Part shown: piece after piece, positions 3,422-27,532 of the stretch
Position numbering within the stretch: position 1 is the stretch's first letter
Layout of the letters: every line of letters starts with the position of its first letter
Source of the DNA: a virus
Reading direction: 5' to 3' (one strand)
IMG/VR virus record: IMGVR_UViG_3300032273_000052
Span: 1 to 33,277 of that record
DNA: 33,277 bases
Position numbers and translations under genes: made by a program
Notes under the pieces: model-generated
What the model saw: only the letters and a program-made list of their open reading frames with translations
Databases searched by the model: none
What the model was told of the DNA's origin: nothing

Positions 3422-4120
3422 CTAGGCAGTTACTTTTAATTTTTCTATAAAGAATATTTGGCCTTTTCCTGTTAGTTTAGTAGTTTGACTTAAGATCTCT
3501 CCTTTAACTGTTTTAACAACTCTTTCAGATACTTTAAATAATCCTTGTTCAACTGCTCTTTGAGTCGGTTCGGTACTATTCTTTTGAATATATCCTTTAT
3601 TTCTTAACCAAGCATATAGCTTACGCTCTCCTAATTTAATTCCTTCATTAGCAAGGATCTTAGAATATTCTCTAATCAAGATACATTCACTAGATTTTTC
3701 AATAGTTTCTGCAAAAGATACCCGAGGTTTATCTACATCAATTTTATTTTCTAAAACTATATTTTTATTATGGAGTTGCTCTAGCATCTTAGTTGATTGT
3801 TGCAAAACTTGTATTATTGACAACTCTTTTGGTTTAATCTCTAGAGACCTTGCATACTTTATTAATTTCATTCTATGGGTATCTGAATATTTCGTAATAA
3901 CCAACATTAATCCGTCTTTACTTAAAACGTAATTAGGTTTAACTCTATTTGCTTTATCTTTGTAAGTAGATGCCCCCAAATCTGGGGTAATCTCTTCAAT
4001 TCCAATGTTTTCAATTATTATTTCAATATCTCTCATTACATGGTCATGTCTCTTTCCTGTTAATTCTGCTATCATGTTACTTGTTATTTTTATATTGTTA
4101 TCTACTTTCATTATTTCCAT
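3422..4120 (-). CDS. Rha-family / KilAC phage antirepressor
   Basis: A 232-residue two-domain DNA-binding regulator. Residues about 10-95 fit the phage Rha family (MIAELTGKRHDHVMRDIE, then YVLSKDGLMLVITKYS). The C-terminal part, about 120-230, fits the KilAC/ANT antirepressor domain (SFAETIEKSSECILIREYSKIL, LYAWLRNKGYI, TLTGKGQIFFIEKL-like ending). Such proteins usually act on the lytic-lysogenic switch. Its place is odd: it sits in the head operon between the gpW-like and portal genes, where lambda has none, 9 bases from its upstream neighbour. It has its own AGGAGGAGACT ribosome site. It is probably a later insertion (a moron), but its target cannot be told from sequence. Confidence 0.85.
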   Translation of the reverse strand: MEIMKVDNNIKITSNMIAELTGKRHDHVMRDIEIIIENIGIEEITPDLGASTYKDKANRVKPNYVLSKDGLMLVITKYSDTHRMKLIKYARSLEIKPKELSIIQVLQQSTKMLEQLHNKNIVLENKIDVDKPRVSFAETIEKSSECILIREYSKILANEGIKLGERKLYAWLRNKGYIQKNSTEPTQRAVEQGLFKVSERVVKTVKGEILSQTTKLTGKGQIFFIEKLKVTA

Positions 4121-6619: not shown

Positions 6620-6770
6620 AAAATTTTGGAACTCCCAAATGAAAAAATTTGTCACGAAAAAACACTCGGGCCCCTCCCCACCGCAAAGCTAAATGAAGCC
6701 CTCACAGTACCTTTTTTAATTGTGGGTTACTTTTTTGGTACATTTCATGTTATTATTTCAATAGACTTAT
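6620..6770. other. Candidate cos packaging region
   Basis: A gene-free stretch of about 170 bases lies between the small terminase and the first mini-gene. At 6664-6690 it holds a run of G and C (CACTCGGGCCCCTCCCC then ACCGCAAAGC) that stands out in this very AT-rich phage. Lambda-type phages carry cos immediately upstream of the small terminase gene, so position, terminase type and composition agree. No nick position can be read from sequence alone. Confidence 0.45.
6727..6756 (+). promoter_or_regulatory. Promoter candidate for the first mini-gene
   Basis: TTACTT at 6727-6732 and TATTAT at 6751-6756 are 18 bases apart, 33 bases upstream of the ATG at 6789. They face away from the packaging operon. 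The match is moderate. Confidence 0.4.
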
Positions 6771-6788: not shown

Positions 6789-6977
6789 ATGCTGTATTGT
6801 ATTAATACTGAGACATATGAAGTTCATGTAATCGGATGCTCATTTATACCTAAGAAAAAGAAAATATTTTTAGGTACTTATGAAAACCCTAGTGCTGCTG
6901 TAGCAGAGGCAAAGATTCAAGGTTATTCAGACGCTAATGGATGTTATTCTTGCTGTCCTAGTGCCCATACAGAGTAA
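6789..6977 (+). CDS. Zn-site mini-protein, copy 1 (H-x3-C-x34-C-x2-C family)
   Basis: A 62-residue protein of unknown function, the first of three paralogs on this strand. Shared features are a CINTET-type start, His13 and Cys17 in EVHVIGC, FLGTYENP (27-34), an Ala-rich helix, GYSDANG and Cys52/Cys55 in CYSC. The H-x3-C and C-x2-C pairs are 34 residues apart in all three copies, which suggests a small zinc module like the Ada-type mini zinc fold. It starts with ATG after GGGGGTGAG, and has its own promoter candidate and terminator. It lies in the cos/terminase region but runs opposite to all packaging genes, as morons do. This copy has an extra Cys56 and a polar tail. Confidence 0.8.
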   Translation: MLYCINTETYEVHVIGCSFIPKKKKIFLGTYENPSAAVAEAKIQGYSDANGCYSCCPSAHTE

Positions 6978-6985
6978 ATAACTTG

Positions 6986-7007
6986 GGGCTCTTTAGCCCT
7001 TTTTGTT
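6986..7007 (+). terminator. Rho-independent terminator of mini-gene 1
   Basis: GGGCT (6986-6990), loop CTTT, AGCCC (6995-6999), followed by a T run. It begins 9 bases after the stop codon of the mini-gene. Confidence 0.8.
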
Positions 7008-7028
7008 TGCTTTGTAACTTTTAATGAT

Positions 7029-7712
7029 TTAATCATTATCATCTATTCTCACTACTTCTTTACCTTCTGATGTTGTTCCACTATGTTTCTTCTCTACTGC
7101 ATAACTATATCCAAGAATGTTATTAATTTCTCTTATAGCACTGATCTCTGTGTCTAAAGACTTCTTATTCTTTACAACCTTTTTTATCTTTCTTCCATCT
7201 GGGGTACTCTCCTCCACATACTCTGTCTCGGTTATACCTTCCTTAGCTCTCCTCTTTATATCTCTCAAATCATTTATCTGTGCGTATGCTCCTAATTTTG
7301 TATCTGTAATAAGTTCTTTCCTTAACTCTTCTATTGTTTGAGTTAGGTTTCTAGATCGTTCTACATCATAGGTCTTAGTCTTCTCTGAATATCCAGCTAT
7401 CCTCTTAGCTTCATCTGTTCCATTTCCTTCCAGCCTAGCTTTGACATACCTAGTTTGCTTTTCTGTCAACCCATCAAAGGTGCATTTAATTGCATTTTTT
7501 TCATCTACTATCTCAGCTATGTATTCTCTATAGTGAGTTTCATGTCTATATATCCATGCAGTAATAGTATTTACTGGTAATTTCATCCTTTTAGATATTT
7601 CTTTGTATTTAGCCTTTTTTGTTTTCCCAAATTTATTAGCCGTGAGTTGTATATATAGTTCTAATGCAGATAGTTGGTTTTTACTTAATTTGTCTATTTT
7701 TTTTCCTCCCAT
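7029..7712 (-). CDS. Second terminase-small-subunit-like protein with HTH
   Basis: A 227-residue protein. The N-terminal part (about 15-75) has a phBC6A51-like helix-turn-helix pattern (YKEISKRMKLPVNTITAWI). The middle matches the Terminase_2/XtmA signature: LTEKQTRYVKARLEGNGTDEA followed by KRIAGYSEKTKTY and a helical 'LTQTIEELRKELI' (about 83-135). The C-terminal tail is charged and probably loose. It is read in the packaging direction and starts at 7712 after AAGGAGGAATTT. With the Nu1-like gene at 6160-6609 this phage has two proteins of small-terminase type on either side of the putative cos. It might bind DNA for packaging or act as a regulator. Confidence 0.65.
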   Translation of the reverse strand: MGGKKIDKLSKNQLSALELYIQLTANKFGKTKKAKYKEISKRMKLPVNTITAWIYRHETHYREYIAEIVDEKNAIKCTFDGLTEKQTRYVKARLEGNGTDEAKRIAGYSEKTKTYDVERSRNLTQTIEELRKELITDTKLGAYAQINDLRDIKRRAKEGITETEYVEESTPDGRKIKKVVKNKKSLDTEISAIREINNILGYSYAVEKKHSGTTSEGKEVVRIDDND

Positions 7713-7722
7713 AAATTCCTCC

Positions 7723-7751
7723 TTGTCTTTTTGCTTTTTCAGTATTATAAT
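7723..7751 (+). promoter_or_regulatory. Promoter of mini-gene 2
   Basis: TTGTCT (7723-7728), 17 bases, TATAAT (7746-7751): a near-consensus sigma-70 promoter, 31 bases before the ATG at 7783. It overlaps the translation start region of the leftward neighbour (RBS just upstream of 7712). Confidence 0.75.
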
Positions 7752-7782
7752 GACATTGTGAAAAGAATACAGGAGGTTTTTT

Positions 7783-7968
7783 ATGACGTATTATGATTAC
7801 TATATCGACACTGAAAATAATAAGATTCATAGAGGAGGTTGTCCTCAACTGTTAAGTATCCCCCATATTTTTTTAGGCAATTTTAAAAATCATGATACTG
7901 CATTTCAATTTGCAGAATTTAGAGGATATATAAATCCCTCTCTTTGTAAATCATGTAATTATCTTTGA
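7783..7968 (+). CDS. Zn-site mini-protein, copy 2
   Basis: A 61-residue paralog of the mini-genes at 6789 and 8185. It has YYIDTENNKIH with His16, GGC with Cys20, IFLGNFKN (29-36), an A-x3-A helix, GYINPSLC with Cys55, and Cys58. The H-x3-C-x34-C-x2-C spacing is identical to that of the other two, while most other positions differ, so the copies have diverged under constraint on the metal-type residues. Start: ATG after CAGGAGG. It has a strong promoter of its own and a terminator right behind it, so it is a single-gene transcription unit. The function is unknown; expression from a prophage (lysogenic conversion or interference) is an inference. Confidence 0.85.
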   Translation: MTYYDYYIDTENNKIHRGGCPQLLSIPHIFLGNFKNHDTAFQFAEFRGYINPSLCKSCNYL

Positions 7969-7980
7969 TAAAATAATTTT

Positions 7981-8005
7981 AGAGCTATATTTATAGCTCT
8001 TTTTT
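7981..8005 (+). terminator. Terminator of mini-gene 2
   Basis: AGAGCTAT (7981-7988), a short loop, ATAGCTCT (7993-8000), then TTTTT. It begins 12 bases after the stop codon. Confidence 0.85.
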
Positions 8006-8184
8006 ATTCTTGTAAATTTCCCTTGGATATATAGATATATCCACCTCCAATAACTGTTACTACCTGTTTTTTCTGAGTTACAACAAATCCTAATGATTCG
8101 CTTATACTTCTAATCAGATTCTATAATTTTCATTTTTTTGAATTTTATGGTAGTATATTTATTAATATTAAGGAGGTGATTTCA

Positions 8185-8370
8185 ATGACACTTTATCTTG
8201 ATTTTTATATTAATACTAAAACCAGTGAAATTCATCAATTTGGATGTAATCATATCTCAGCTGGAAATAATACTTATTTAGGGATTTATAAAAATAGAGA
8301 GATAGCATTATCACACGCTAAGTCTAAAGGCTTTGTGAATGCTTCTATTTGTAATTCTTGCAATATATAA
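8185..8370 (+). CDS. Zn-site mini-protein, copy 3
   Basis: A 61-residue paralog of the two preceding mini-proteins: FYINTKTSEIH with His17, FGC with Cys21, YLGIYKNRE (31-39), an A-x3-A helix, GFVNASIC with Cys56, and Cys59. The ATG at 8185 is chosen because AGGAGGTGAT ends 5 bases before it; a GTG three codons earlier lies inside that ribosome site. A terminator follows at 8387. The promoter is less clear than for copy 2. The three copies lie within 1.6 kb, all on the strand opposite to the phage late genes. Metal binding is inferred from the invariant His/Cys set and not shown. Confidence 0.82.
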   Translation: MTLYLDFYINTKTSEIHQFGCNHISAGNNTYLGIYKNREIALSHAKSKGFVNASICNSCNI

Positions 8371-8386
8371 TTTCAGAATAATGATT

Positions 8387-8410
8387 GGGGCTATTATATA
8401 GCCCCTTTTA
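8387..8410 (+). terminator. Terminator of mini-gene 3
   Basis: GGGGCTA (8387-8393), loop TTATA, TAGCCCC (8399-8405), then TTTTATT. It lies 16 bases after the stop codon. Confidence 0.85.
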
Positions 8411-10972: not shown

Positions 10973-12637
10973 TTACTTGCCCTCTTTAATTTCTTTGTAT
11001 ATTTTATTACTCACTCGATCAAATAAAATTTTTCTTTGACTTAAGTTTTCAATAGCTATTTTAAAAAATTTTGGATTCATTTCTTTTTGAAGAATAAGTT
11101 TTTTCATTAACTCTTTAGAAATAACAGCCTTAAATTCTTCTAAATCATTTGATTCTACATACATATCTATTTTGTTTATTCCCATTACATCATCATAAAA
11201 GTTTTGGATTTCTTTTTTATATTCATCAAAAGGATCTGCCTTTTTTATTGTTGATTTCAGATTTGGTTTAATAGATCTTTTTTCAAGTTCATTTTTCAAA
11301 TGTGAAGCCATATTTGAAAGATCTGGATAAACACTTCCACCGTGAATGTTTAAAAGTTTTAAATCATTTAATATTTTTTCTTTTATTTGTTTATCAATTA
11401 TTAATATCTTTTTGGGAAGTTCACTTAAATTGTCTACACATTTACTTTTATTTTCTACATCTATTCCACAGAAAATAAAATCCCCGCTTTGACTATCAAT
11501 TCTAGGGTTTTTGGCAACACCTTTTACAAAATAATTTTTTTCCATTATTTCTTTTGGTCTACTACATTCTATTTCTTCTTTATTTTTACAGTTGTTACAA
11601 AGTTTTTCAACGTCTTCATACGAAACTGTTACTAAATTGCTAAGACACTCTAATTTTGTATTTGAAAAATTCAAGATGTTTTTTCTACTTTCTTCTAATA
11701 CATATAACACTCCATCTTTCTCAAAGTGTTTTTCACAAGCAAAATACAAACCAATTAAAGGATTTCTACTTAAATCAACCAACCTTGTTGGTAAACCAAA
11801 ATGCTGCATTGTTATTAATTTTTCATATACTGATTTGTCGTTATCGAATTCATTAGGTTTCAACGATAATATCTCAAAAAATAATTCATCTTCCTCTCTT
11901 TTTAAATTTGAATTTCTCGAGATACTTGGGGAAATATCCCGAGAAGCATTTGCTTGACCTCTATAAAATGTTTGAATATCTTCCTCACTAGTTGTTTTTT
12001 TTTCAATTATTTTGTTTAAAAAATTTTCATAGTCTAATAAAAACAGCAATTGATCTTTATATTTTTTATTTATATAAAGATTCTTTATTTTTTTTATTTT
12101 TTTTATTTTCTCTGAAGTATCTATATGAACGTTTTTATCTTCAGTTATTTCAGAGGTCAGCTTTTCTATATAAAATTTAACTTTTTCAGTCCCTAATATA
12201 AATTCATCTACTAATAATTCATTAGTCTCATTAAATTCAAATAAATGTTCTATATATGTTATTAAAAAATTAATTTCTTGAGTCTTTTTTGATACCCCTT
12301 TTTCTAATAAATCCCATAGAACATACTCTTTTATACAATTGTCTATTGATTTTTCTTTATCTTTAAGCCTATTTTTTCTATCCAACTTAAGTAAAATTCT
12401 ATGGCCTACTTTGGTTAATTTAAAAACATTATCTCGAAAATACTCTTTTCCTTTAGTGTTAATTGTATCAATTTTTTCTTTTTTCAAATTAAAGTATTTA
12501 AAGTCCATTGATAAATCTTTCTGAAAAAAATCGAAAGTTAAATAATAATACTTAGTTTTACTTATTTTTTTTTCTAGATCTTCTTTTAATTTTTTTTTCA
12601 TAAGAATTTCTATTGTTTCTACACTCTTAGTTGACAT
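10973..12637 (-). CDS. FRG-domain protein
   Basis: A 554-residue protein whose middle holds an FRG domain: FYRGQANASRDISPSISRN (224-242), then MQHFGLPTRLVDLSRNPL (277-294) and IGLYFAC (295-301). FRG domains are named for the Phe-Arg-Gly motif (YRG here) and occur in phage and defence loci; their activity is not settled, although some are thought to have ADP-ribosyltransferase-like folds. The N-terminal 210 residues are helical and highly charged, the C-terminal 200 also helical. It starts 52 bases after hsdR with AGGGGGATAAAG upstream, so it is probably the last large gene of the restriction operon. A role as an added toxin or effector is an inference. Confidence 0.8.
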   Translation of the reverse strand: MSTKSVETIEILMKKKLKEDLEKKISKTKYYYLTFDFFQKDLSMDFKYFNLKKEKIDTINTKGKEYFRDNVFKLTKVGHRILLKLDRKNRLKDKEKSIDNCIKEYVLWDLLEKGVSKKTQEINFLITYIEHLFEFNETNELLVDEFILGTEKVKFYIEKLTSEITEDKNVHIDTSEKIKKIKKIKNLYINKKYKDQLLFLLDYENFLNKIIEKKTTSEEDIQTFYRGQANASRDISPSISRNSNLKREEDELFFEILSLKPNEFDNDKSVYEKLITMQHFGLPTRLVDLSRNPLIGLYFACEKHFEKDGVLYVLEESRKNILNFSNTKLECLSNLVTVSYEDVEKLCNNCKNKEEIECSRPKEIMEKNYFVKGVAKNPRIDSQSGDFIFCGIDVENKSKCVDNLSELPKKILIIDKQIKEKILNDLKLLNIHGGSVYPDLSNMASHLKNELEKRSIKPNLKSTIKKADPFDEYKKEIQNFYDDVMGINKIDMYVESNDLEEFKAVISKELMKKLILQKEMNPKFFKIAIENLSQRKILFDRVSNKIYKEIKEGK

Positions 12638-12689
12638 ATGTTTTCTTTATCCCCCTAAATTAAATACAATATATTTTGACTAAAAAAAT

Positions 12690-15623
12690 TTACCTTTGCT
12701 CCTGCATCTCCTCATAGACCTTCTCAGCTATGACATTCATAAGGTATTTAGATAATCCCTCATTACTTAATATATTCATAATTATTTCAGAAAAATCTTT
12801 CTTTTGTCTGATTAACCCTCTTTTAAAATGAGATTTACCAAACATCTTTGTAAAATCTTCTTGAGAGTTAACCTTTGCCATCTGTTGTAATTTAGGATCT
12901 CCTATAAATATTTTTTCTATATTTTCAAACATAACTTTATTTTCTTCAGTTAGTCCGATCCCATAGATATCATTTATCCTAGCTATTATCTCATCTAACC
13001 CTTCTAGTTTTTCTTCTTTCCCACCACGGCCATTTCCTACTCCAGTTAGATCTCCTTCTCCCTTACTAATAGATATATTCCCTTCTGATATTTTAGATAT
13101 CTTATAGTAATCTATTGATAGGATCTCATCTAGGTCTACACCAGTTAAAACATCCTTTGGTAACTTTTTATATAACCCTATTAAATATACATAGAGTTTC
13201 AATAGATCCAATTTTTTTATTGGGTAGATCTGTAATAAAAATTTATAAAGGTTTATATATTCACGGGCTTTCCCTTTGAAGTCGTCTTTCATCTCATCAT
13301 CAAAAGTTAAAAATATCTCTACACCTTCATCTAATAAACTGTTTAGTTTAGCATCTTGCTTCTCAGTTCTTTTTTTCTTAAAATAGAGTATAGCAAATTC
13401 GTTTATTTTTTCTTCAGCATAGATTGGAAATTCCTTGATCTCATAAAATTTATCAAATATACTATTGGGATCAGTAGTACTCTTTATCTCGGTACTCTCA
13501 TAATATGGTTTAAAAGACTTTTGGATATCCTCTACACCATTTACAAAATCCAAGATGAAGGTTTGCTTATCTTTATATCTTCTGTTTAGTCGTGAGAGAG
13601 TCTGTACACACTTTACTCCTCCCAAACTTTTATCTACATACATAGCACACAGTTTAGGTTGGTCAAATCCAGTTTGATATTTTTCAGCTACTATCAATAG
13701 CTTTTGTTCATCTTTATTAAATTCAATAGGGATATCTTTTACTCCACCATTTAATTTTTCCTCTGTATACTCGATCTCGTCTTCCTCTACCTTACCAGAA
13801 AAAGCTACTAGAGTTTTCATAGAATATCCCATCTCTTTTATATATTTATCTATGGCTATCTTATATTTTACAGCAGATAAACGGCTTCCAGTCACTACCA
13901 TTCCTTTAGATTTCCCTCCTAACCACATCTCACGATTATTTCTAAAATCTTCTACTATTATCTCTACCTTTTGTCTGATATTATATTCATTTAATTCCAC
14001 AAATTTTCTTACAGCATTGGTAGCCTTCCCCTTATCAAAATCAGGATCATCTTGTATAGTTTTAGCTATCTTATAATATCTTTCATAAGTTGCATAGTTT
14101 TTTAAGATATCTATGATAAATTTCTCTTCTATGGCTTGTTTCATCGAGTATAGATGAAATTCATGAGGTTTTTTATCTTCTCCCATAGTTCCAAATGTTT
14201 CAAATGTTTTAGATTTTGGAGTAGCTGTAAATGCAAAGAAGCTAAGGTTATCTAATTTACTTCTTTTACCGATATATTCAGCCATAATATCATCAGAAGT
14301 ATAGTCTTCTTTTTCTATCTCCTCCACTGTCTTTCCAGCTAGAGTCATCTTTAGTGCTCCCATACTTTCACCAGCAGTAGAAGAATGAGCCTCATCTATA
14401 ATTACTGCATAGTTCTTACCACTGAGGTTTTCTATCTTTTCCAGTGCGAATGGAAATTTTTGAATAGTTGTTATGATTATTTTTTTATTATTTTCTATAG
14501 CATGAGCTAGATCTTTAGAGCTTTTATTCTCATCTATCTTCTCTACTACGCCATGTTTATGTTCTATTTGATAGATAGCATCTTGTAGCTGCTTATCTAA
14601 TACCTTTCTATCGGTAATAACTATTACACTGTTAAATATAGCATGGTCATCCTTATTGTGAAGACTAGATAGTCTATGAGCTAACCAAGAGATAGAGTTT
14701 GTCTTTCCAGATCCAGCACTATGTTGGATTAGATAGTTCTGTCCGCATCCCTTCTCCAAAATATCTCCTACTATCTTTCTGACTACATCCAATTGATGGT
14801 ATCTAGGGAATATCTGTGTTTCTTTAATCTTTTTAGAGTTAGGGATCTCTTCTTTTTGAATATAGTAAAATCTATTTATAATATCAGAAAGTGTATTTTT
14901 AGTTAAAATATCATCCCAAAGATAATGTGTTTTATGTTTTGTAGGGTGTACAGGATTCCCTTTTCCCTTGTTGTTTCCCTTATTAAACGGTAAGAAAAAT
15001 GTAGATTTCCCATTTAATTTAGTAGCCATATGCACTTCATTATCATCTACTGCAAAGAATACCAGTGTTCTTTCAGAGAATATCTTCTCCTTAAAATCCC
15101 TGTCAGTTTTCCATTGTTTTATAGCATTTTTATAGTTTTGACCAGTCAGGGTATTTTTTAATTCAATAAAAACAAGAGGTATACCATTTATAGATATTAC
15201 AGTGTCTATCCTGTCTTTATTCTCCAAAGAGTAATAAAACTCATTGGTTACTGTAAAGATATTTTCCCTGTATTTATCTACAAGGGTTTTATTCTTATTT
15301 GAGTTAGGAACAAAATACATTAATTTAAAGTTACGAGATAGACTATAATCACTGATTCCTTCTCTTATTACCTTTATCAATCCTTTTTTCCTGATACTTA
15401 TATCTATCAGAGCAAACAATTCTTCTTCCCAGTTTCCACCCTTAGATTTTTTATATTCATCCAAGAGATCTTCTTGGGTATGGGTAAGAAACCTGATCAT
15501 ATCATTTTTAAATATATTGTATTTATAGTTAAAATCTTTATTATATCCCTCTTCATAGCCGATACTAAGAAGGTGATTGGTTATTGTTTTAAATTGTAGA
15601 TCCTTTTCCTTAGGTAGTGCCAT
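12690..15623 (-). CDS. hsdR: Type I restriction enzyme, R (endonuclease/translocase) subunit
   Basis: A 977-residue protein of normal length. The N-terminal nuclease has Asp140 and FIELKN (152-157), the D...ExK pattern. Next come the helicase motifs: Walker A HSAGSGKT (301-308), DEAH in AVIIDEAHSS, FFAFTATPKSKT (motif III region) and QTLSRLNRRYKDK (motif VI). It pumps DNA and cuts at a distance when the target is unmethylated. All motifs look intact. The start at 15623 follows GAGGTGAAATAA, 14 bases after the DUF4238 gene. It is separated from hsdM and hsdS by three unrelated genes, so the system is not in the simple three-gene order. Confidence 0.97.
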   Translation of the reverse strand: MALPKEKDLQFKTITNHLLSIGYEEGYNKDFNYKYNIFKNDMIRFLTHTQEDLLDEYKKSKGGNWEEELFALIDISIRKKGLIKVIREGISDYSLSRNFKLMYFVPNSNKNKTLVDKYRENIFTVTNEFYYSLENKDRIDTVISINGIPLVFIELKNTLTGQNYKNAIKQWKTDRDFKEKIFSERTLVFFAVDDNEVHMATKLNGKSTFFLPFNKGNNKGKGNPVHPTKHKTHYLWDDILTKNTLSDIINRFYYIQKEEIPNSKKIKETQIFPRYHQLDVVRKIVGDILEKGCGQNYLIQHSAGSGKTNSISWLAHRLSSLHNKDDHAIFNSVIVITDRKVLDKQLQDAIYQIEHKHGVVEKIDENKSSKDLAHAIENNKKIIITTIQKFPFALEKIENLSGKNYAVIIDEAHSSTAGESMGALKMTLAGKTVEEIEKEDYTSDDIMAEYIGKRSKLDNLSFFAFTATPKSKTFETFGTMGEDKKPHEFHLYSMKQAIEEKFIIDILKNYATYERYYKIAKTIQDDPDFDKGKATNAVRKFVELNEYNIRQKVEIIVEDFRNNREMWLGGKSKGMVVTGSRLSAVKYKIAIDKYIKEMGYSMKTLVAFSGKVEEDEIEYTEEKLNGGVKDIPIEFNKDEQKLLIVAEKYQTGFDQPKLCAMYVDKSLGGVKCVQTLSRLNRRYKDKQTFILDFVNGVEDIQKSFKPYYESTEIKSTTDPNSIFDKFYEIKEFPIYAEEKINEFAILYFKKKRTEKQDAKLNSLLDEGVEIFLTFDDEMKDDFKGKAREYINLYKFLLQIYPIKKLDLLKLYVYLIGLYKKLPKDVLTGVDLDEILSIDYYKISKISEGNISISKGEGDLTGVGNGRGGKEEKLEGLDEIIARINDIYGIGLTEENKVMFENIEKIFIGDPKLQQMAKVNSQEDFTKMFGKSHFKRGLIRQKKDFSEIIMNILSNEGLSKYLMNVIAEKVYEEMQEQR

Positions 15624-15637
15624 TTATTTCACCTCAA

Positions 15638-16483
15638 TTAATTATTTCTATATTTTGTTAAAAATTCTTTTAAAGATTCTATACTTTTTGTATTTGAAAA
15701 ATAAAGTTTTTCTGAGCAAGCTAAACCAACTGAATTAATATAATCAATTATTTCTCCTGTGATATTCACTACCGTATTATTTATTGCCTGACTATTTTGT
15801 GGATACAGTACTAAACAAACGTTTTTACTCAAAGGAAAGGTATGTATTTGACATCTAGAATCTATTCCAACACCGCTTGAATACGCACAAAAATTTATTT
15901 TACTTTCATTTTTTATTTTTAATAACACCCATTTTTTATTAAATAAATCCTTTATAATATCATTATAAGGTACCATTTCTCCCATAGCTTTTAAATGAAT
16001 TAATTTTTCATCAATATTTATTTTTAATTCTTTTGTTGGTACAGGGGAGTTAATTAATCCTTTTTTTTCAAGTATCAAAGCTATATTTTTAAATACTTGT
16101 CCGTGTAAATCAGCCATCATTTTTCTAAATTTATCAGTTTTAGTAATTTGAAATGCAATATACATAGACAAAAAAGATTTTGTACTATCACTAAATATGT
16201 CTTCTTCTTTTATTCTTTCACCATCATAAATATTTCTAAAAAAAGGACCTTCTAATACTTGTTCAAATCCATCTTCTAAAATATTATCAGGGTTTTCAAC
16301 ATCTGCTTCATAAAAAAATTTTGAAGCTAAAGTTTTTTTTATTTTTTTAGGTTCAAATTCAAAACTTTTTATATTTAAAACTAAAATCCTTTTTTTTTCT
16401 TTTGCTTTCCCCTCTTTTAATTCAAATTTTCTTAAATAACCTTGTGGGATATAGTGTTGATTTTTGACTATAGGCTTTTTCAT
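15638..16483 (-). CDS. DUF4238 protein in the restriction operon
   Basis: A 281-residue protein. The start is at 16483 because AGGAGGAGAG lies just before this ATG, while a codon 24 bases upstream lies before it and has no ribosome site. The opening PIVKNQHYIPQGYLRKFE is the hallmark of DUF4238, whose members often sit in defence islands and may be nucleases; no function is established. Further pieces are KKTLASKFFYE (about 50-60) and a C-terminal region of strands ending in a helix. It lies between a lipoprotein gene and hsdR and reads the same way, so it is probably an accessory of the restriction locus. Confidence 0.8.
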   Translation of the reverse strand: MKKPIVKNQHYIPQGYLRKFELKEGKAKEKKRILVLNIKSFEFEPKKIKKTLASKFFYEADVENPDNILEDGFEQVLEGPFFRNIYDGERIKEEDIFSDSTKSFLSMYIAFQITKTDKFRKMMADLHGQVFKNIALILEKKGLINSPVPTKELKINIDEKLIHLKAMGEMVPYNDIIKDLFNKKWVLLKIKNESKINFCAYSSGVGIDSRCQIHTFPLSKNVCLVLYPQNSQAINNTVVNITGEIIDYINSVGLACSEKLYFSNTKSIESLKEFLTKYRNN

Positions 16484-16517
16484 TTCTCTCCTCCTAATTT
16501 TAATCAATATTCACAAC

Positions 16518-16541
16518 TTGATAGCTCCTCAGAGCTATCAA
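16518..16541 (-). repeat. Perfect 10-base inverted repeat between operon genes
   Basis: TTGATAGCTC (16518-16527), loop CTCA, GAGCTATCAA (16532-16541). It is not followed by a T run on the minus strand, so it is more likely an mRNA processing or stability hairpin than a terminator. Confidence 0.6.
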
Positions 16542-16564
16542 TAAATCAATATTAATAAAAATAA

Positions 16565-17050
16565 TTAATCAGCTAAAAATGTTGCTCCACCTCTATTAAG
16601 ACTATAAATATCATAATATTTAGTCATCTCTTTAAGCTCTCCATTTAGAATAAATCTAACGGTTATATTAATAGCGAGTATATTATCTCCCATAGAAATA
16701 GGAACCGTAAAGGTTTTATTAGTATTTAAAATCTTTATTAATTCTTGTTCTGAAACTTCACTATATTCTCCTGATCTAGTAGTATAAACTACAGTTACTG
16801 GAGCAACTTCGCGATATACATCATCAATTCCTATAGCTTCAAAAGGAATATTTAAAACAGCTAAACCAGATTTATATTTACTTAAATAAGATATGACTTG
16901 ATCTCGGCCATCTCTTAGGTACATTTGATTATTAACATAATAATATTTCCAATTCGACTCTACTTTAGGTGCAACGTATGGTTCTACACGTGCACACCCT
17001 AAAAAATTTAAAGTTATAATAACTATAGCTAATAATAATATTTTTTTCAT
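16565..17050 (-). CDS. Predicted lipoprotein, unknown function
   Basis: A 161-residue protein. MKKILLLAIVIITLNFLGC is a clear signal peptide with lipobox NFLG-C, so Cys19 should be lipid-modified and the rest exported. The mature part is beta-rich (VTVVYTTRSGEYSEVSEQE, TFTVPISMGDNILAINITV), with no catalytic motif that I can name. It lies in the middle of the hsd operon, 10 bases after the nuclease-like gene. An exported lipoprotein is unexpected in a restriction locus; prophage lipoproteins often block superinfection at the envelope, which would fit but is not shown. Confidence 0.75.
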   Translation of the reverse strand: MKKILLLAIVIITLNFLGCARVEPYVAPKVESNWKYYYVNNQMYLRDGRDQVISYLSKYKSGLAVLNIPFEAIGIDDVYREVAPVTVVYTTRSGEYSEVSEQELIKILNTNKTFTVPISMGDNILAINITVRFILNGELKEMTKYYDIYSLNRGGATFLAD

Positions 17051-17060
17051 TTCAATCTCC

Positions 17061-17594
17061 TTAATTTTCTGTTATCTCAAATGAAGTTTTATTAAATAAA
17101 TATACCTTTTCTATCCCAACTTGAGAAAAAAAGTAAATTTTCATGTCATAAATTTTTGGTACTACTAGATTTTTATTTTTTGGCTTATATTCAATAGCAA
17201 TGGAGTGTTTGTAGCAATAAGGTTCTTTCTTGTAACCTTTTAATTTTTCTTTATCTTTTTTATTTAAATATACTTTTTTACACTCAATTGCAACTAAGTT
17301 ATTGTCATTTTCTCCACGTTCATGTATTAGTATATCTGGAATCATTCGCCTGTTTGAATCTATACTAGTATATTTACACCTGTCGCCATTTTTATTATAT
17401 TCAATATCTACACTTATAGTTGGATTACCTATTAATCCCTCAAGATTAGATGCATTAAAATATTTTTCTAAATACATTGCTAATTTATGATTGATAGCCT
17501 CCTCTTTAAGGTTTCTATCAATTAATTCATTATCTTTCTCTATTAGCTTTTTTAATGATAGTTTTAACAATCGTAATACATTTTCTTCATTCAT
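17061..17594 (-). CDS. Putative PD-(D/E)xK nuclease-like protein in the hsd operon
   Basis: A 177-residue protein. The core is RRMIPDILIHERG (about 82-94) followed by NLVAIECKKVYLN (about 98-110): Asp in PDILI and E-x-K in IECKK match the D...ExK active site of restriction-type nucleases. The tail contains Tyr-rich segments and IEYKPKN. No DNA-recognition domain is seen, and the length is close to a minimal nuclease fold. It starts at 17594 after AGGGGGGGATCTT, about 75 bases after the hsdS stop and the hairpin there. It could be a small nuclease or an inactive regulator. The product is otherwise unrecognised. Confidence 0.6.
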   Translation of the reverse strand: MNEENVLRLLKLSLKKLIEKDNELIDRNLKEEAINHKLAMYLEKYFNASNLEGLIGNPTISVDIEYNKNGDRCKYTSIDSNRRMIPDILIHERGENDNNLVAIECKKVYLNKKDKEKLKGYKKEPYCYKHSIAIEYKPKNKNLVVPKIYDMKIYFFSQVGIEKVYLFNKTSFEITEN

Positions 17595-17633
17595 AAGATC
17601 CCCCCCTTTTTCTAACTATCTCTCCAACCTCAG

Positions 17634-17654
17634 TTTCTCCCTATGAGGGAGAAA
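17634..17654. repeat. Hairpin between hsdS and the nuclease-like gene
   Basis: TTTCTCCCT (17634-17642), loop ATG, AGGGAGAAA (17646-17654), perfect over 9 bases. There is no T run behind it on the minus strand, so it may attenuate or stabilise mRNA without ending it. Confidence 0.55.
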
Positions 17655-17669
17655 ACATAAAAAGGAGGG

Positions 17670-18911
17670 TTACAGTACCTCTATCTTCCCTGTTACAGCC
17701 TCACTTATCAAACTTTGCTTAGCTTCTCTGAGCTTTATAATTTGATTTTTTATATTAAAAATAATACTATCTACTTTATTTTTTCTGTTAAATATAAATT
17801 TTCCAATACTATCTTGTTCATCAAACTTTGCAAATGGAATATGTAAATTTTCAATCATACTAACTGCTAATCCAGGTTGTGCCGCAGACATTGAATATTG
17901 ATTTAAATTCATAGACCTTAATAATTCTCCTAACCAATTTATATCTATTTGAGATTTTAAAAGGGTTACTACTATAGCATGTTCAGAAGCCCAAAATTTA
18001 TTTAACGCATAGTTTATATTTCCACAAAGAGCTCCTTGCCTTCCTATTAAAATGTATTTTCCATCATGAGTATGAGAATCAGTATAACCTCTAAATCCAT
18101 TCCCTCCATATACAGAAAATTTCCCTGTCTCTTTAATGTCATCAGAAGTAATGCTATTCCCACTTTGAAGTTTAGCCCAAAACTTTATTTTTCCTACTTT
18201 CCACTCCTCCGGAATCATCCCAAGCCATTCTACTCCACTATTTTTCATCTCTTCAGTAGGTCTATTTTTAACTTTCAACTGACCACTTTCATCTATACTT
18301 ACCTTCTTTTTCCCTGTTACAACTTCAGAAATCAAACTCTTCTTAGCTTCTTCCAATTTTTCGATAAGTTTTTCTTTTTTCTCTATAACTTCATCAAACT
18401 CAGACGTTTTTTTGTTTAGAAAATCGACTATCTTTTGTTTATTCTCAGAAGGAATTAAAGATAAAATGTTTGCCATTTCATTATTCATTATTTTCGCGCC
18501 ATTTGTATCTGGACGCTTATAATATTGAGCTGCAAAAGAAAGATAATAAAAATAATATTCTAAAGAATCATTTTTATCTAAAGCTTCTAAAGTACCACAA
18601 ACATTAGTACAATTATATTTACCATCCCTTAAAAAAATAGTTCCTGCATTAGCCCCATCAGTTGTCCAAGTAATTAATTTTTTTGAAAAATCATACGAAT
18701 TAATATAACCTAAACATCCATTATGTAAAGTTTGCGATGAATATACAGGGTATTTCCCATTATCATCTAACTCTCCTTGAGAAATAACTCTACCTCTTCC
18801 TATTTTAAATTTATATTTTATTTTTCCTATTTCCCACTTCTTCGGAATTATCCCAAGCCACTTTACTCCACTATCCTTCATCTCATGTGGTTCTCTGTAT
18901 CTGTATTTCAT
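17670..18911 (-). CDS. hsdS: Type I restriction-modification specificity subunit
   Basis: A 413-residue protein with the usual two-fold layout. The motif 'EMK-SGV-WLG-IP--W--GKIK' occurs twice, at about 10-32 and 221-243, each opening a target recognition domain. The conserved spacer helix with LEEAKKSLISEVVTG (186-200) recurs near the C-terminus (REAKQSLISEAVTGK). The two recognition domains differ, so the site is asymmetric and bipartite, as is normal. The start codon overlaps the hsdM stop as TAATG. The repeats are also alike at DNA level (about 18192-18252 and 18832-18892), which could allow recombination of half-domains. The target sequence cannot be read from sequence. Confidence 0.95.
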   Translation of the reverse strand: MKYRYREPHEMKDSGVKWLGIIPKKWEIGKIKYKFKIGRGRVISQGELDDNGKYPVYSSQTLHNGCLGYINSYDFSKKLITWTTDGANAGTIFLRDGKYNCTNVCGTLEALDKNDSLEYYFYYLSFAAQYYKRPDTNGAKIMNNEMANILSLIPSENKQKIVDFLNKKTSEFDEVIEKKEKLIEKLEEAKKSLISEVVTGKKKVSIDESGQLKVKNRPTEEMKNSGVEWLGMIPEEWKVGKIKFWAKLQSGNSITSDDIKETGKFSVYGGNGFRGYTDSHTHDGKYILIGRQGALCGNINYALNKFWASEHAIVVTLLKSQIDINWLGELLRSMNLNQYSMSAAQPGLAVSMIENLHIPFAKFDEQDSIGKFIFNRKNKVDSIIFNIKNQIIKLREAKQSLISEAVTGKIEVL

Positions 18912-20929
18912 TAGCTTAGCACCTTCTTGATTCCTTCTTGGATCTCTGTCTCAAGGGTAGATATTTCAGCCATTATTTCCTCAAATCCTCTCAACTTTTC
19001 ATACTTATAAAAATGTCTTGTAAATGGTATCTCATATCCGATCTTGTCTAGGGTAGATTCATCTATCTTAGCATCAGGGACATGAGGTAATACTTCGTTT
19101 TGGAAGTATGTTGCGATGTCTTCCTTTAGTGGGATAGTTTCAGTGTCTCTTAGGCTAGTATCTGGTTCTACTATTCCTTTATTGTTCTTACACACTACTG
19201 CATCTTCATCTCTCTCGCCGATACTACTCCATACTGCCTTTAATAATGCTCCCTTTACAAAATCTATCTCATTAGTTTTAAGTTGATCCTTCAGGTCTTT
19301 CAAGAACTCTTCCCTGTCTAAATAAATTTTAGTTATTTTAGATAATGATTTTATTAATCTTTCTTGTTTTTCCCTTCCCTCAGTTTCCTCTATCTCTTTT
19401 AACTCTTCTTTTTTCTTCTTAGATATAGCCAAATTTATATACTGATTGCTATTTTTAAATGTTTCTAAAGTCTCTTCATTGATTTCAAACCTTAATTTTA
19501 AAGGTCTGTCTACCGTTACTTTTCTAAAACCAAAATCAGTATTATCAAATATTTTAGATAGTTCACTCTCTTCAAATTTAGCATAGATATCCTTTATCTT
19601 TTGAATTTGTTCAGGAAATATTTTTTTTCTCTTACTCCCCAATGATTTTGGCATAGGTTTATAAAAATTAGACCCGTCTACTAGTTGAATTTTTCCTTTT
19701 CTTTTAGTAGATTTTTTATTTGTTAATACCCAGACATATGTTGAGATTCCTGTATTATAAAACATATCTGTAGGTAGTGCTATTATCCCCTCTAACATAT
19801 CAGATTCTATTATCCATTTTCTTATATTACTTTCTCCACTCCCTGCATCTCCTGTAAATAATGGTGAACCGTTAAGGATTATCGCTATTCTTGACCCATC
19901 TTCATCTGTTTTCATCTTATTTATCATATTTTGTAAAAATAATAATGATCCGTCACTTACTCTCGGAGTACCAGCACCAAATCTGCCATCAAATCCTAAT
20001 TCAGCTTCCTGTTTGATAGCATTTTCTTCATCTTTCCAAGTTACCCCATATGGTGGATTAGAGATCAAGAATCTAAACTTATCTCCTCTAAATTTATCTT
20101 CACTCAGTGTATTCCCAAGTCTAATATTTTCAGGACTTTCCCCTTTCATAATCATATCAGCCTGACAGATAGCAAAAGATTCATCCATAAGTTCTTGCCC
20201 GTATAGTTGTACTTCAGCATCTTTATTATGTTTTTCTACATACCTTCTTGCTTCAGATAACATCCCACCAGTTCCGACACAAAAATCTGCTATATCTATT
20301 AATTTTCCTTTTTTTTCTATAAATTCTTCCTTTGTATAAAATAACATCTCCATACAAAGTTCTACTACTTCACGAGGGGTATAGTGTTCCCCTGCATCTG
20401 TATTTTCATAAAATTTTCTAATCATCTCTTCATATATTTTTCCCATCTCTTCATTGGGTACTTTGTCCATGTGTAGATCTACCTCTGAAAATTTTTGTAT
20501 AACTGCATATAATTTATTTTTTTTATTTAGATGATCTATCTGCGTTGTAAATTTAAAGTTATCCATGATCTTTCTTACATTTTCAGAAAACCCATTTATA
20601 TATTCCTTTAGGTTGTCTGCTATATTTTCACTATCATCTAATAAACTTTGAAAATTATAGTCAGAAATATTAAAGAAACTCATGTGTTTTTGATTATATA
20701 CTTCTTCTGCTTCTGCTATTACCATCTCGTCTCTTTCGTTTCCACTTACATAGGTAGTTTCATTGTATATATCCTTAATTTGATCTCTGTCATGTACATC
20801 TAAAATACAATCAAATCTTCTAAGGACTATCATAGGTAACATTACCTTTCCATAGTCTTCTGCCTTATATGTTCCTCTCAAACTTTCTGCTATATTCCAT
20901 AAAAAACTTACATAGTTAAAATTACTCAC
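18911..20929 (-). CDS. hsdM: Type I restriction-modification DNA methyltransferase subunit
   Basis: A 672-residue adenine-N6 methyltransferase. SAM-binding motif I is FCVGTGGM (216-223) and the catalytic NPPY is at 291-294. The HsdM-type N-terminal helical region is present (FLWNIAESLRGTYKAEDYGKVML, about 10-30), as is the 'GEHYTPREVVELC' segment (180-192). It is longer than EcoKI-type HsdM, with a long helical C-terminal tail (about 500-672). It starts 39 bases after the S24-like gene with no visible terminator between, so repressor and methylase may share a transcript. In a lysogen this would keep the host site methylated. Confidence 0.96.
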   Translation of the reverse strand: MSNFNYVSFLWNIAESLRGTYKAEDYGKVMLPMIVLRRFDCILDVHDRDQIKDIYNETTYVSGNERDEMVIAEAEEVYNQKHMSFFNISDYNFQSLLDDSENIADNLKEYINGFSENVRKIMDNFKFTTQIDHLNKKNKLYAVIQKFSEVDLHMDKVPNEEMGKIYEEMIRKFYENTDAGEHYTPREVVELCMEMLFYTKEEFIEKKGKLIDIADFCVGTGGMLSEARRYVEKHNKDAEVQLYGQELMDESFAICQADMIMKGESPENIRLGNTLSEDKFRGDKFRFLISNPPYGVTWKDEENAIKQEAELGFDGRFGAGTPRVSDGSLLFLQNMINKMKTDEDGSRIAIILNGSPLFTGDAGSGESNIRKWIIESDMLEGIIALPTDMFYNTGISTYVWVLTNKKSTKRKGKIQLVDGSNFYKPMPKSLGSKRKKIFPEQIQKIKDIYAKFEESELSKIFDNTDFGFRKVTVDRPLKLRFEINEETLETFKNSNQYINLAISKKKKEELKEIEETEGREKQERLIKSLSKITKIYLDREEFLKDLKDQLKTNEIDFVKGALLKAVWSSIGERDEDAVVCKNNKGIVEPDTSLRDTETIPLKEDIATYFQNEVLPHVPDAKIDESTLDKIGYEIPFTRHFYKYEKLRGFEEIMAEISTLETEIQEGIKKVLS

Positions 20930-25862: not shown

Positions 25863-26033
25863 ATGAAAAAACAAAAATTAAGACCAAATCATCAAGAAAT
25901 TATAGCTATGAGTTTAGAAGATCTAAATTTTATATTAAAAAGTGAATATTTACTGACAAATAGACAAGTTAAACAAATTAAATCAGAAGTTAAAAGAAAA
26001 AGAAACACTACAGGGCAAAAGGTGATTGTCTAA
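25863..26033 (+). CDS. Small basic protein coupled to ParA, 56 residues
   Basis: ATG follows TAGGAGGCAAG. It reads MKKQKLRPNHQEIIAMSLED, then LNFILKSEYLLTNRQVKQ and a Lys/Arg-rich tail. Its stop overlaps the start of the ParA gene (TAATG), so the two are co-translated. A part in partition, for example DNA binding, is suggested by this coupling alone. Confidence 0.6.
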   Translation: MKKQKLRPNHQEIIAMSLEDLNFILKSEYLLTNRQVKQIKSEVKRKRNTTGQKVIV

Positions 26034-26749
26034 TGGCTAAGATAATTTTATTTAAAAACAATAAAGGAGGAGTGGGGAAATCCTTACTCTGTTTCTGGAG
26101 TGCTCATATCCTTTCTACATTATCAAAAACAAGTGATGATAAGAAAAATAAAGTATTAATCCTTACATCTGATTCACAAAATAATATTATGCAGATGGCA
26201 GGAGCCAAATTAGGCTATGGTGATGGTCTCCAAGGTTATATAGATGATAGAGGTTCAGATCTGATTAGATTAAGGGAAAACTTGTTTTATATCCCTCTCA
26301 CCTCTACTGGAATAAAGAGAACTTTTGAAACTAGGTTCTTAGATGTAATAGAAGTTTTTAAAAAACAATATGACTATATTCTGATAGATGGATCACCAGT
26401 ACTCAAATTAGATAACATCTTTTTAGAAGTCAGTGACAAAGTAGTAATTCCAACCTTCCTAGATAATATAACTACTAAAGGGATGGTAAATCTTATTAAT
26501 GAAATTGGAGTTGATAAAGTAGCTTTAATCGTCCCTAATAGGGTTGGTAGAAGTAAGATGGAGTATGAACACCTAAATAAGATAAAAACGAGCCTAGAGG
26601 GAATAGGAGCTGTTATCACTGATCCTATTTATCAAACTACAAAGATAATGAAACTTACAGAAAAATCCAAAACAATCATGGAAACCAAAAGTAAACAATA
26701 TGATGATATAAAGCAAATATTTAAAAAAATTGTACGGGAGGTGATGTAG
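26033..26749 (+). CDS. ParA-family partition ATPase
   Basis: A 238-residue ATPase. The deviant Walker A KGGVGKS (11-17) with the signature lysine is near the N-terminus, Walker A' VLILTSDSQNN is near 47-57, and Walker B YDYILIDGSP is near 114-123. It lacks an N-terminal helix-turn-helix, as in small type Ib ParA proteins. It would segregate a low-copy replicon on the nucleoid. The next gene follows immediately, with a start beside the ribosome site GGGAGGTGAT inside the end of this gene. Its presence in a phage suggests plasmid-style maintenance at some stage. Confidence 0.9.
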   Translation: MAKIILFKNNKGGVGKSLLCFWSAHILSTLSKTSDDKKNKVLILTSDSQNNIMQMAGAKLGYGDGLQGYIDDRGSDLIRLRENLFYIPLTSTGIKRTFETRFLDVIEVFKKQYDYILIDGSPVLKLDNIFLEVSDKVVIPTFLDNITTKGMVNLINEIGVDKVALIVPNRVGRSKMEYEHLNKIKTSLEGIGAVITDPIYQTTKIMKLTEKSKTIMETKSKQYDDIKQIFKKIVREVM

Positions 26750-27427
26750 TTGGATGTCTTTGGAGAACTTCAGAAAGCAGTGAAAAAAGAAATATATGTT
26801 TCAAACTTTGATTTCGGGAATCACGAAATTGAAAAAGAAGATATTCTGTTTATAAAAAATAGTGAGCAAATATTGAGAAAGAATTTTATGGGAATATCAG
26901 AATCTCTATATGAGATATGTATGATCCTTAATCAGATCTCTTTAAAATTTAAAAGATCCGGAGATTTTATGGAATGGTATGAAGCTAATGGATTAACCAA
27001 AGATAGTATTTCAGAGTTCAATAAAAGGTTTATCTTATTCCAGGAGTTCAAGGATAAAAAAGATTTCATCTCATCCCTCTCTACACAGTCAGTTAAATTT
27101 TTAACTCATAAAGATGTTACAGCAGATGCCAGGGAAAAAATAATCAATGGTGGAATAAAAAAAGCTGAAACCATAAAAGAATTATTAGCTCCTATAAGAG
27201 ATCAGATAGCAATCGAATTTAAAAAACCAATTCAATATGTTAATTATAAAAAGCTCGATAAGATGAAAACTAGAATAATTAAAGTAGAAGATGGGAATGA
27301 ATTAAATTCTTTAAAAGCCGACTTAGGAGCCCTGGAGAACTATTTAAAAGATATGAAACAAGCTATTAAGGATAAAGAGAAAGAATGGGAAAATAAAAAT
27401 AATTTAAAGCTAGTTGAGGAGGTATAA
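26750..27427 (+). CDS. Probable ParA partner, helical (DUF3102-like)
   Basis: A 225-residue protein that starts at TTG (26750), directly after the ParA stop and a GGGAGGTGAT site. It is nearly all helix. A stretch of 'I...EQILRKNFMGISESLYEIC' and 'FKRSGDFMEWYEANGLTKDSI' (about 42-90) resembles the DUF3102-type 'G.f..W......S..tA' pattern, which is common next to plasmid and phage ParA genes. There is no ParB nuclease-like motif. The C-terminal end is a charged coiled coil. It probably fills the ParB role, which is inferred from position and fold. Confidence 0.6.
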   Translation: MDVFGELQKAVKKEIYVSNFDFGNHEIEKEDILFIKNSEQILRKNFMGISESLYEICMILNQISLKFKRSGDFMEWYEANGLTKDSISEFNKRFILFQEFKDKKDFISSLSTQSVKFLTHKDVTADAREKIINGGIKKAETIKELLAPIRDQIAIEFKKPIQYVNYKKLDKMKTRIIKVEDGNELNSLKADLGALENYLKDMKQAIKDKEKEWENKNNLKLVEEV

Positions 27428-27430
27428 GCT

Positions 27431-27532
27431 ATGATTAAATTTAATGAAAAAATAACAGAGGTTGAATCAAAAGAAAATTTAAGTACAGTTGTTAAATTAC
27501 TTAAAAGAATAAATAAGAGGATAAAATCATGA
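27431..27532 (+). CDS. Tiny basic protein before the recombinase, 33 residues
   Basis: ATG at 27431 follows GAGGAGGTATAAGC. The product is MIKFNEKITEVESKENLSTV followed by a Lys/Arg helix. Its TGA overlaps the ATG of the serine recombinase (ATGA), so it may couple translation of that gene or act as a small directionality helper. No family is recognised. Confidence 0.5.
   Translation: MIKFNEKITEVESKENLSTVVKLLKRINKRIKS

What the first reader, a model, noticed from the sequence alone, without database searches (positions are those of the whole stretch)
6789..8370. Three stand-alone paralogous mini-proteins with an invariant H-x3-C-x34-C-x2-C pattern
Within 1.6 kb three rightward single genes oppose the packaging operon. 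Their products (62, 61, 61 residues) differ at most positions but keep His, three Cys, an LG motif, an A-x3-A helix and a GY/GF residue, with the 34-residue spacing identical. Each has a strong ribosome site and a terminator; copy 2 has a near-consensus promoter. This is the layout of lysogeny-expressed morons. Three diverged copies suggest selection for variety, e.g. against different targets. The fold may be like the Ada-type mini zinc fold. The family may be undescribed.
Basis: partly seen in the sequence, partly recalled or inferred. Interest (0 to 1): 0.85.

Follow-up and report, generated by a model that had tools for sequence, protein, structure and literature searches.

The report
Swappable zinc mini-protein genes in prophages
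Three small stand-alone genes in a prophage of marine fusobacteria encode diverged copies of a widespread but uncharacterised zinc-site-like mini-protein whose predicted fold resembles the DNA-repair protein Ada; related phages swap versions of it at the same spot, as they do with genes used in conflicts between phages and bacteria.

Summary
Three homologous 61-62 aa genes (6789-6977, 7783-7968, 8185-8370, +) lie antisense to the packaging operon, each with a ribosome site and terminator. They share the core H-x3-C-x34-C-x2-C. The family is not confined to this window: it is PHROG 4298 (unknown function, no Pfam or NCBIfam model), found in phages, plasmids and chromosomes of Pseudomonadota, Bacillota, Actinomycetota, Bacteroidota and Fusobacteriota, nearly always as a solitary gene. 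The x34 spacing is the commonest, not invariant. Confident AlphaFold models have E. coli N-Ada as their top, though weak, solved match. A His stands where Ada has its methyl-accepting Cys, so Ada-type phosphotriester repair is unlikely. In seven related Fusobacteriaceae phages the copy-1 site is always filled, but by different allele classes exchanged between phages: closest relatives can differ most, distant ones share alleles. dN/dS is below 1 but far above that of the terminase. The window also encodes a type I restriction system and an FRG protein; sibling phages carry TIR, DUF4435, AAA or methyltransferase genes nearby. Best reading: an autonomous prophage moron encoding a zinc-stabilised binding domain, perhaps for defence or counter-defence. 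The molecular target is unknown.

The parts
6789..6977 (+). mini-protein copy 1 (62 aa, MLYCINTETYEVH...), slot 1 next to TerS
   Evidence: ORF; phrog_4298 E 2.3e-13; counterparts at the same position in L085-L088, L132, L136; AlphaFold pLDDT 91.5
6727..6756 (+). possible extended -10 promoter of copy 1 (TTACTT-18-TATTAT with TG before the -10), read by eye
   Evidence: sequence; TG-TATACT-like boxes at the same place in sibling alleles (alignment); not listed by the consensus scan
6985..7000 (+). terminator of copy 1
   Evidence: GGGCTNNTTAGCCC-like hairpin kept in the sibling alleles
7723..7751 (+). sigma-70-like promoter of copy 2 (TTGTCT-17-TATAAT)
   Evidence: 10 of 12 matches; such sites in the region are not above chance in number
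7783..7968 (+). mini-protein copy 2 (61 aa, MTYYDYYIDTENNKIH...); AGGAGG at 7771-7776
   Evidence: ORF; groups with L129:10293-10475 of genome G060 (tree support 100/100); not found in siblings L085-L087
7981..8000 (+). terminator of copy 2
8185..8370 (+). mini-protein copy 3 (61 aa, MTLYLDFYINTKTSEIH...); AAGGAGGTGA at 8170-8179
   Evidence: ORF; phrog_4298 E 0.0029; counterparts at the same position in L085 and L086; AlphaFold pLDDT 88.8
8387..8405 (+). terminator of copy 3
   Evidence: hairpin kept in L085 and L086
6160..6609 (-). terminase small subunit, conserved flank of slot 1
   Evidence: phrog_57 E 4e-18
7029..7712 (-). 227-aa terminase-small-subunit-like gene between slot 1 and slot 2/3
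   Evidence: phrog_21070 E 8e-68; phrog_51 E 1e-6
10973..20929 (-). phage-borne defence cluster near the slots: FRG-domain protein (10973-12637), HsdR (12690-15623), HsdS (17670-18911), HsdM (18911-20929), with unnamed genes between
   Evidence: Pfam hits

Best explanation
Each gene is an autonomous single-gene moron: own ribosome site and terminator, probably own promoter, antisense to the late operon and so able to be read in the lysogen. The product is a 61-62 residue domain whose H, C, C and C residues would hold one zinc ion in an N-Ada-like alpha/beta fold. Because a His replaces Ada's methyl-accepting Cys, and no second domain is present, it should not repair DNA phosphotriesters; it should work as a small metal-stabilised binding module. 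Most likely it binds a partner involved in host, rival-phage or restriction conflict, so phages keep at least one copy in a fixed slot, swap divergent alleles there and add further classes next to it. Shown: homology, gene layout, ligand conservation, slot conservation with allele exchange, neighbouring defence genes. Inferred: zinc binding, lysogenic expression, binding mode, target.
For: Homology and conserved H-C-C-C. Confident models of two copies with N-Ada as the top PDB chain: 1u8b Z 3.9, rmsd 2.2 A over 48 residues; and Z 4.0, 2.8 A over 49, with three further Ada entries for copy 3. Terminator enrichment. The copy-1 slot is filled in 7 of 7 related phages by three allele classes between conserved flanks. 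Allele exchange: window vs L087 has TerL dS 0.34 but copy-1 dS 2.0 (34% aa identity), while L087 vs L132 has TerL dS 1.12 but copy-1 dS 0.37. Solitary genes, often antisense, in unrelated phages of Streptococcus, Staphylococcus 187, Erysipelothrix, an Enterococcus phage-plasmid, and upstream of TerS in an E. coli prophage. Defence genes in the window and siblings: HsdR/M/S and FRG in the window; DUF4435 in L086, N6/N4 methyltransferase in the copy-2/3 slot of L087, TIR in L132, AAA_15 in L136.
Against: No expression or binding data. The Ada resemblance is weak by every score (Foldseek E > 0.5; Z about 4; profile comparison not significant). The defence link was seen only in this Fusobacteriaceae phage group and was not tested against a background; neighbours elsewhere are heterogeneous. 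Some Fusobacteriota copies sit in ordinary chromosomal surroundings, one type near nqrF in two genomes, so the family is not only a phage conflict gene.
Confidence: 0.45

Rival explanations
1. Lysogenic conversion or stress function unrelated to conflict: a small zinc protein that helps the host cell (metal buffering, redox or envelope stress), kept as a passenger on mobile elements.
For: Multiple copies in marine Fusobacteriota chromosomes (up to five matches per genome), one type near nqrF in two genomes; very broad host range.
Against: Allele swapping at a fixed phage slot and amino-acid divergence well above that of flanking genes are not typical of a housekeeping role; no conserved functional partner among neighbours.
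Confidence: 0.25
2. Nucleic-acid-binding regulator: the N-Ada-like domain binds DNA or RNA and regulates phage or host transcription, for example late genes or superinfecting phages.
For: N-Ada is a DNA-binding domain and is the top structural match; copies lie near antirepressor genes in Streptococcus, Erysipelothrix and Anoxybacillus elements.
Against: No HTH or extra DNA-binding part; pI varies from 4.2 to 9.8 across the family (window copies 6.1, 6.8, 8.5), so no conserved basic character.
Confidence: 0.15
3. Restriction modulator working like the small prophage proteins Lar/Ral: it adjusts type I restriction-modification, here perhaps the phage's own HsdRMS.
For: The window carries HsdR, HsdM and HsdS; single copies near RM genes in a Roseivivax plasmid, a Vibrio harveyi plasmid, a Fusobacteriota HsdM (L113) and a C5 methylase (L115).
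Against: No Pfam Lar match; RM neighbours are a minority of contexts and were not compared with a background; sibling phages keep the genes next to other defence genes.
Confidence: 0.15

Closest known systems
PHROG 4298 (viral protein family, unknown function)
   Same: Copy 1 matches over its length (E 2e-13), copies 2 and 3 weakly; same H-C-C-C core, size and solitary gene layout.
   Different: The Fusobacteriota forms lack the NGDHEVH insert and most of the extra C and C-H residues of the typical members; copies 2 and 3 end right after CxxC.
N-terminal methylphosphotriester-repair domain of E. coli Ada (Ada_Zn_binding, PF02805)
   Same: Top solved-structure match for both models; likely one four-ligand metal site with a pair of ligands 4 residues apart near the start and a CxxC at the end.
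   Different: First ligand is His, not the methyl-accepting Cys38; ligand spacing 34 rather than about 26; free-standing; no sequence match to PF02805.
Prophage morons (accessory loci), e.g. genes antisense to lytic genes with their own promoter as described in PMC7067206
   Same: Solitary, antisense to late genes, own terminator, variable between related phages.
   Different: Expression in the lysogen and phenotype not shown here; three members of one family together.
Lar/Ral restriction alleviation proteins (PF14354)
   Same: About 60-residue, Cys-rich, prophage-encoded proteins (analogy from general knowledge).
   Different: No profile match; different Cys pattern; no evidence of restriction alleviation.
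Phage defence hotspots (PMC9122126)
   Same: A position in related prophages filled by different accessory and defence genes.
   Different: The mini-genes are not known defence genes; their function is unproven.

Membership tests
PHROG 4298 | Profile match | tested here: met
   Copy 1 E 2.3e-13; copy 3 E 0.0029; copy 2 E 0.033; copies 2 and 1 joined to copy 3 by pairwise matches E 5e-14 and 1e-10.
PHROG 4298 | H-x3-C ... C-x2-C core | tested here: met
Ada_Zn_binding (PF02805) | Pfam profile match | tested here: not met
   No hit for the three copies or for 27 family members; profile-profile comparison not significant.
Ada_Zn_binding (PF02805) | Four Cys ligands including the methyl-acceptor Cys | tested here: not met
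   First ligand position is His in all three copies and in the family. The pairing His to Cys38 is inferred from aligned residue ranges, not from coordinates.
Ada_Zn_binding (PF02805) | N-Ada fold | tested here: inconclusive
   Top chain in both searches but Z only 3.9-4.0; phage N4-type capsid decoration proteins score nearly as high.
Prophage moron | Own terminator and antisense to late genes | tested here: met
Prophage moron | Own promoter | tested here: inconclusive
   Copy 2 has a 10/12 match in the right place, but such sites are not above chance; -10-like boxes before slot-1 alleles seen by eye.
Prophage moron | Variable or exchangeable between close relatives | tested here: met
Prophage moron | Transcribed during lysogeny and not needed for phage growth | not testable with these tools
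   No RNA or genetic data held.
Lar restriction alleviation (PF14354) | Pfam profile match | tested here: not met
   No hit for the three copies at E <= 1.

The most novel reading that the evidence does not exclude
A widespread, unnamed class of stand-alone Ada-like HCCC zinc mini-proteins serves mobile elements of at least five bacterial phyla as interchangeable conflict effectors (inhibitors of defence or of rival phages), with target choice encoded by allele classes that phages exchange at a dedicated slot next to the packaging genes.
Probability: 0.27. Interest if true: 0.8.

Novelty: new variant of a known kind. Interest (0 to 1): 0.5.

Why it matters
A small gene carried by phages, plasmids and chromosomes of many phyla, conserved enough to be kept in seven of seven related phages and yet swapped between them, has no name in Pfam or NCBIfam and no function. 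Knowing its partner could reveal a common but overlooked anti-host or anti-phage activity. The slot makes the question testable, because natural allele swaps in otherwise similar phages can be compared directly.

Tried and rejected
Single-protein and trio-based scans of viral contigs found no relatives, because only near-identical 8-residue stretches are matched; alignments A2 and A3 were too diverse to use. Chance origin was rejected. Recent duplication inside this phage is unlikely: each copy groups with counterparts in other genomes rather than with its neighbours (tree; few columns, many forks unresolved). Ada-type repair was rejected because the acceptor position is His. Positive selection by dN/dS was not found. 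Sequence searches of solved structures gave nothing useful. Structural matches to Kunitz inhibitors were dropped: TM about 0.35, rmsd above 5 A, different Cys pattern. A capsid-decoration role (matches to N4/Moo19 decoration proteins, Z 2.7-3.6) was set aside because the family also lives on plasmids and chromosomes and is antisense to the head genes. PADLOC found no hit for the mini-proteins. Full-text searches for a characteristic peptide and for the PHROG number found no paper. A conserved operon partner was looked for and not found.

Full report
What is there. The window is a prophage with host genes at its right end (adenine deaminase, dicarboxylate symporter). Terminase (gpA type), portal, head protease, CI-like repressor, antirepressor, ParA and serine recombinase genes are present. 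A terminase 76% identical lies in a Fusobacteriaceae metagenome-assembled genome (L088), and three IMG/VR contigs carry close relatives (L085-L087; blastn matches to the window 78-95% identical), so the host is most likely a member of the Fusobacteriaceae, probably marine (inference). Three rightward genes of 61-62 codons lie at 6789-8370 among leftward packaging genes.

The observation. Copy 3 finds copies 2 and 1 at E 5e-14 and 1e-10 and nothing else in the window. A motif scan of all six frames gives only these three ORFs. Each gene is followed within 20 nt by a terminator-like hairpin, more than shuffles give. Copy 2 has a good promoter-like site in the right place, although such sites are not above chance in this AT-rich stretch.

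Distribution. Copy 1 matches PHROG 4298, unknown function, at E 2e-13; copies 2 and 3 weakly. No Pfam or NCBIfam family fits the three copies or 27 members. tblastn finds members in phages of Vibrio, Streptococcus, Staphylococcus and Erysipelothrix and on plasmids of Vibrio, Serratia, Escherichia, Citrobacter, Roseivivax, Paracoccus, Flammeovirga, Anoxybacillus, Enterococcus and Gordonia, among others. 73 IMG/VR loci encode members, 53 of 5426 E. coli genomes hold one form, and 13 of 98 Fusobacteriota genomes have matches, up to five each. The IMG/VR loci were selected with patterns that do not include the Cys columns; H-C-C-C is kept in them. Exceptions exist among the Fusobacteriota copies: L086's copy 3 has lost the first Cys of CxxC, and L118, L121 and L122 look decayed or partial.

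Gene layout elsewhere. In Streptococcus phages Javan231 and Javan420, Staphylococcus phage 187 and Erysipelothrix phage SE-1 the gene is solitary and mostly antisense to the lytic genes, near antirepressor or repressor genes. In an Enterococcus faecium phage-plasmid it is antisense, upstream of the terminase genes. In E. coli it lies between lysis genes and TerS. Plasmid neighbours differ each time. Terminator-like hairpins follow 29 of 39 distinct IMG/VR copies and 20 of 36 other Fusobacteriota copies, against 17 of 213 and 11 of 74 long-ORF controls.

Slot and allele exchange. Between the start of TerS and the next gene, all seven related phages (window, L085-L088, and prophages L132 and L136 of genomes G056 and G057) have one mini-gene, in the same antisense orientation, with a similar terminator. 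The occupants fall into three classes: MLYCI-type (window, L085, L088, L136), MKHYID-type (L086) and MTYFI-type (L087, L132). The window and L087 are nearly identical in TerL (98% aa, dS 0.34) but differ in slot 1 (34% aa, dS 2.0). L087 and L132 are distant in TerL (78% aa, dS 1.12) yet share the slot-1 class (71% aa, dS 0.37). This is best explained by exchange of alleles by recombination. Within classes dN/dS is about 0.3-0.8, against roughly 0.03-0.15 for TerL, so the proteins change fast but positive selection is not shown. Copy 3 has counterparts in L085 and L086; copy 2 has none in L085-L087, and L087 carries a DNA methyltransferase gene in that place. Genome G060 has five family members within about 5.3 kb, including a copy-1 and a copy-2 counterpart close together. 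The three copies therefore look like old, separate lineages brought together, not a fresh triplication.

Surroundings. The window encodes HsdR, HsdS and HsdM and an FRG-domain protein at 10973-20929. At the corresponding side siblings carry a DUF4435 protein (L086), TIR-domain proteins (L132) and an AAA_15 ATPase (L136); in a mixed set of 36 neighbouring genes PADLOC gave hits to PARIS-like, methyltransferase and PtuA-like ATPase models. The slots thus border a variable region rich in defence genes, comparable to known phage defence hotspots (PMC9122126). No background rate was computed, and outside this phage group no such association was evident.

Structure. AlphaFold models of copy 1 (pLDDT 91.5, 27 sequences) and copy 3 (pLDDT 88.8, 24 sequences) have three strands and one helix, then the CxxC. 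The best solved match for both is N-Ada (1u8b): Z 3.9, 2.2 A over 48 residues, and Z 4.0, 2.8 A over 49; 1zgw and 1wpk also appear for copy 3. These scores are weak, and the profile comparison with Ada domains from Fusobacteriota was not significant. Ada-like is therefore a working model of the fold, not a membership.

Mechanism. A His in the place of the methyl-accepting Cys and the absence of a second domain argue against Ada-type repair. A 61-residue zinc-stabilised domain with a fixed core and a fast-changing surface is best read as a binding module. Its position, its exchange between phages and its neighbours favour a role in conflict between phages and hosts; a host-benefit role, a nucleic-acid regulator and a restriction modulator remain possible. 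Antisense accessory genes of prophages are known to be transcribed in lysogens (PMC7067206), but this was not tested here.

Verdict.

Noticed in passing
window 10973-20929: Complete-looking type I restriction-modification set (HsdR, HsdS, HsdM) plus an FRG-domain protein and unnamed genes carried by the prophage.
   Followed up: partly
window 6655-6720: A G+C-rich block (gggcccctccccaccgcaaagc) followed by CTCACAGTACCTTTTTT, upstream of TerS, is conserved in all seven related phages; it could be the cos or packaging site.
   Followed up: no
window 3422-4120: An antirepressor-type gene lies inside the packaging/head module, between terminase and portal genes; absent from L086-L088 at that place.
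   Followed up: no
L129:5231-10475 (genome G060): Five family members within about 5.3 kb of chromosome, two of them a longer variant with an insert before the LG motif.
   Followed up: partly
L098, L106: An NGDHEVH-type or related copy lies near nqrF in two Fusobacteriota genomes, suggesting a chromosomally settled lineage.
   Followed up: no
L086:4286-4468: Copy-3 counterpart has lost the first Cys of its CxxC, a possibly decaying allele.
   Followed up: no
L087:4630-5985: An N6/N4 DNA methyltransferase gene occupies the copy-2/3 slot in this sibling phage.
   Followed up: partly
window 26033-28941: ParA-like ATPase followed by a large serine recombinase gene.
   Followed up: no
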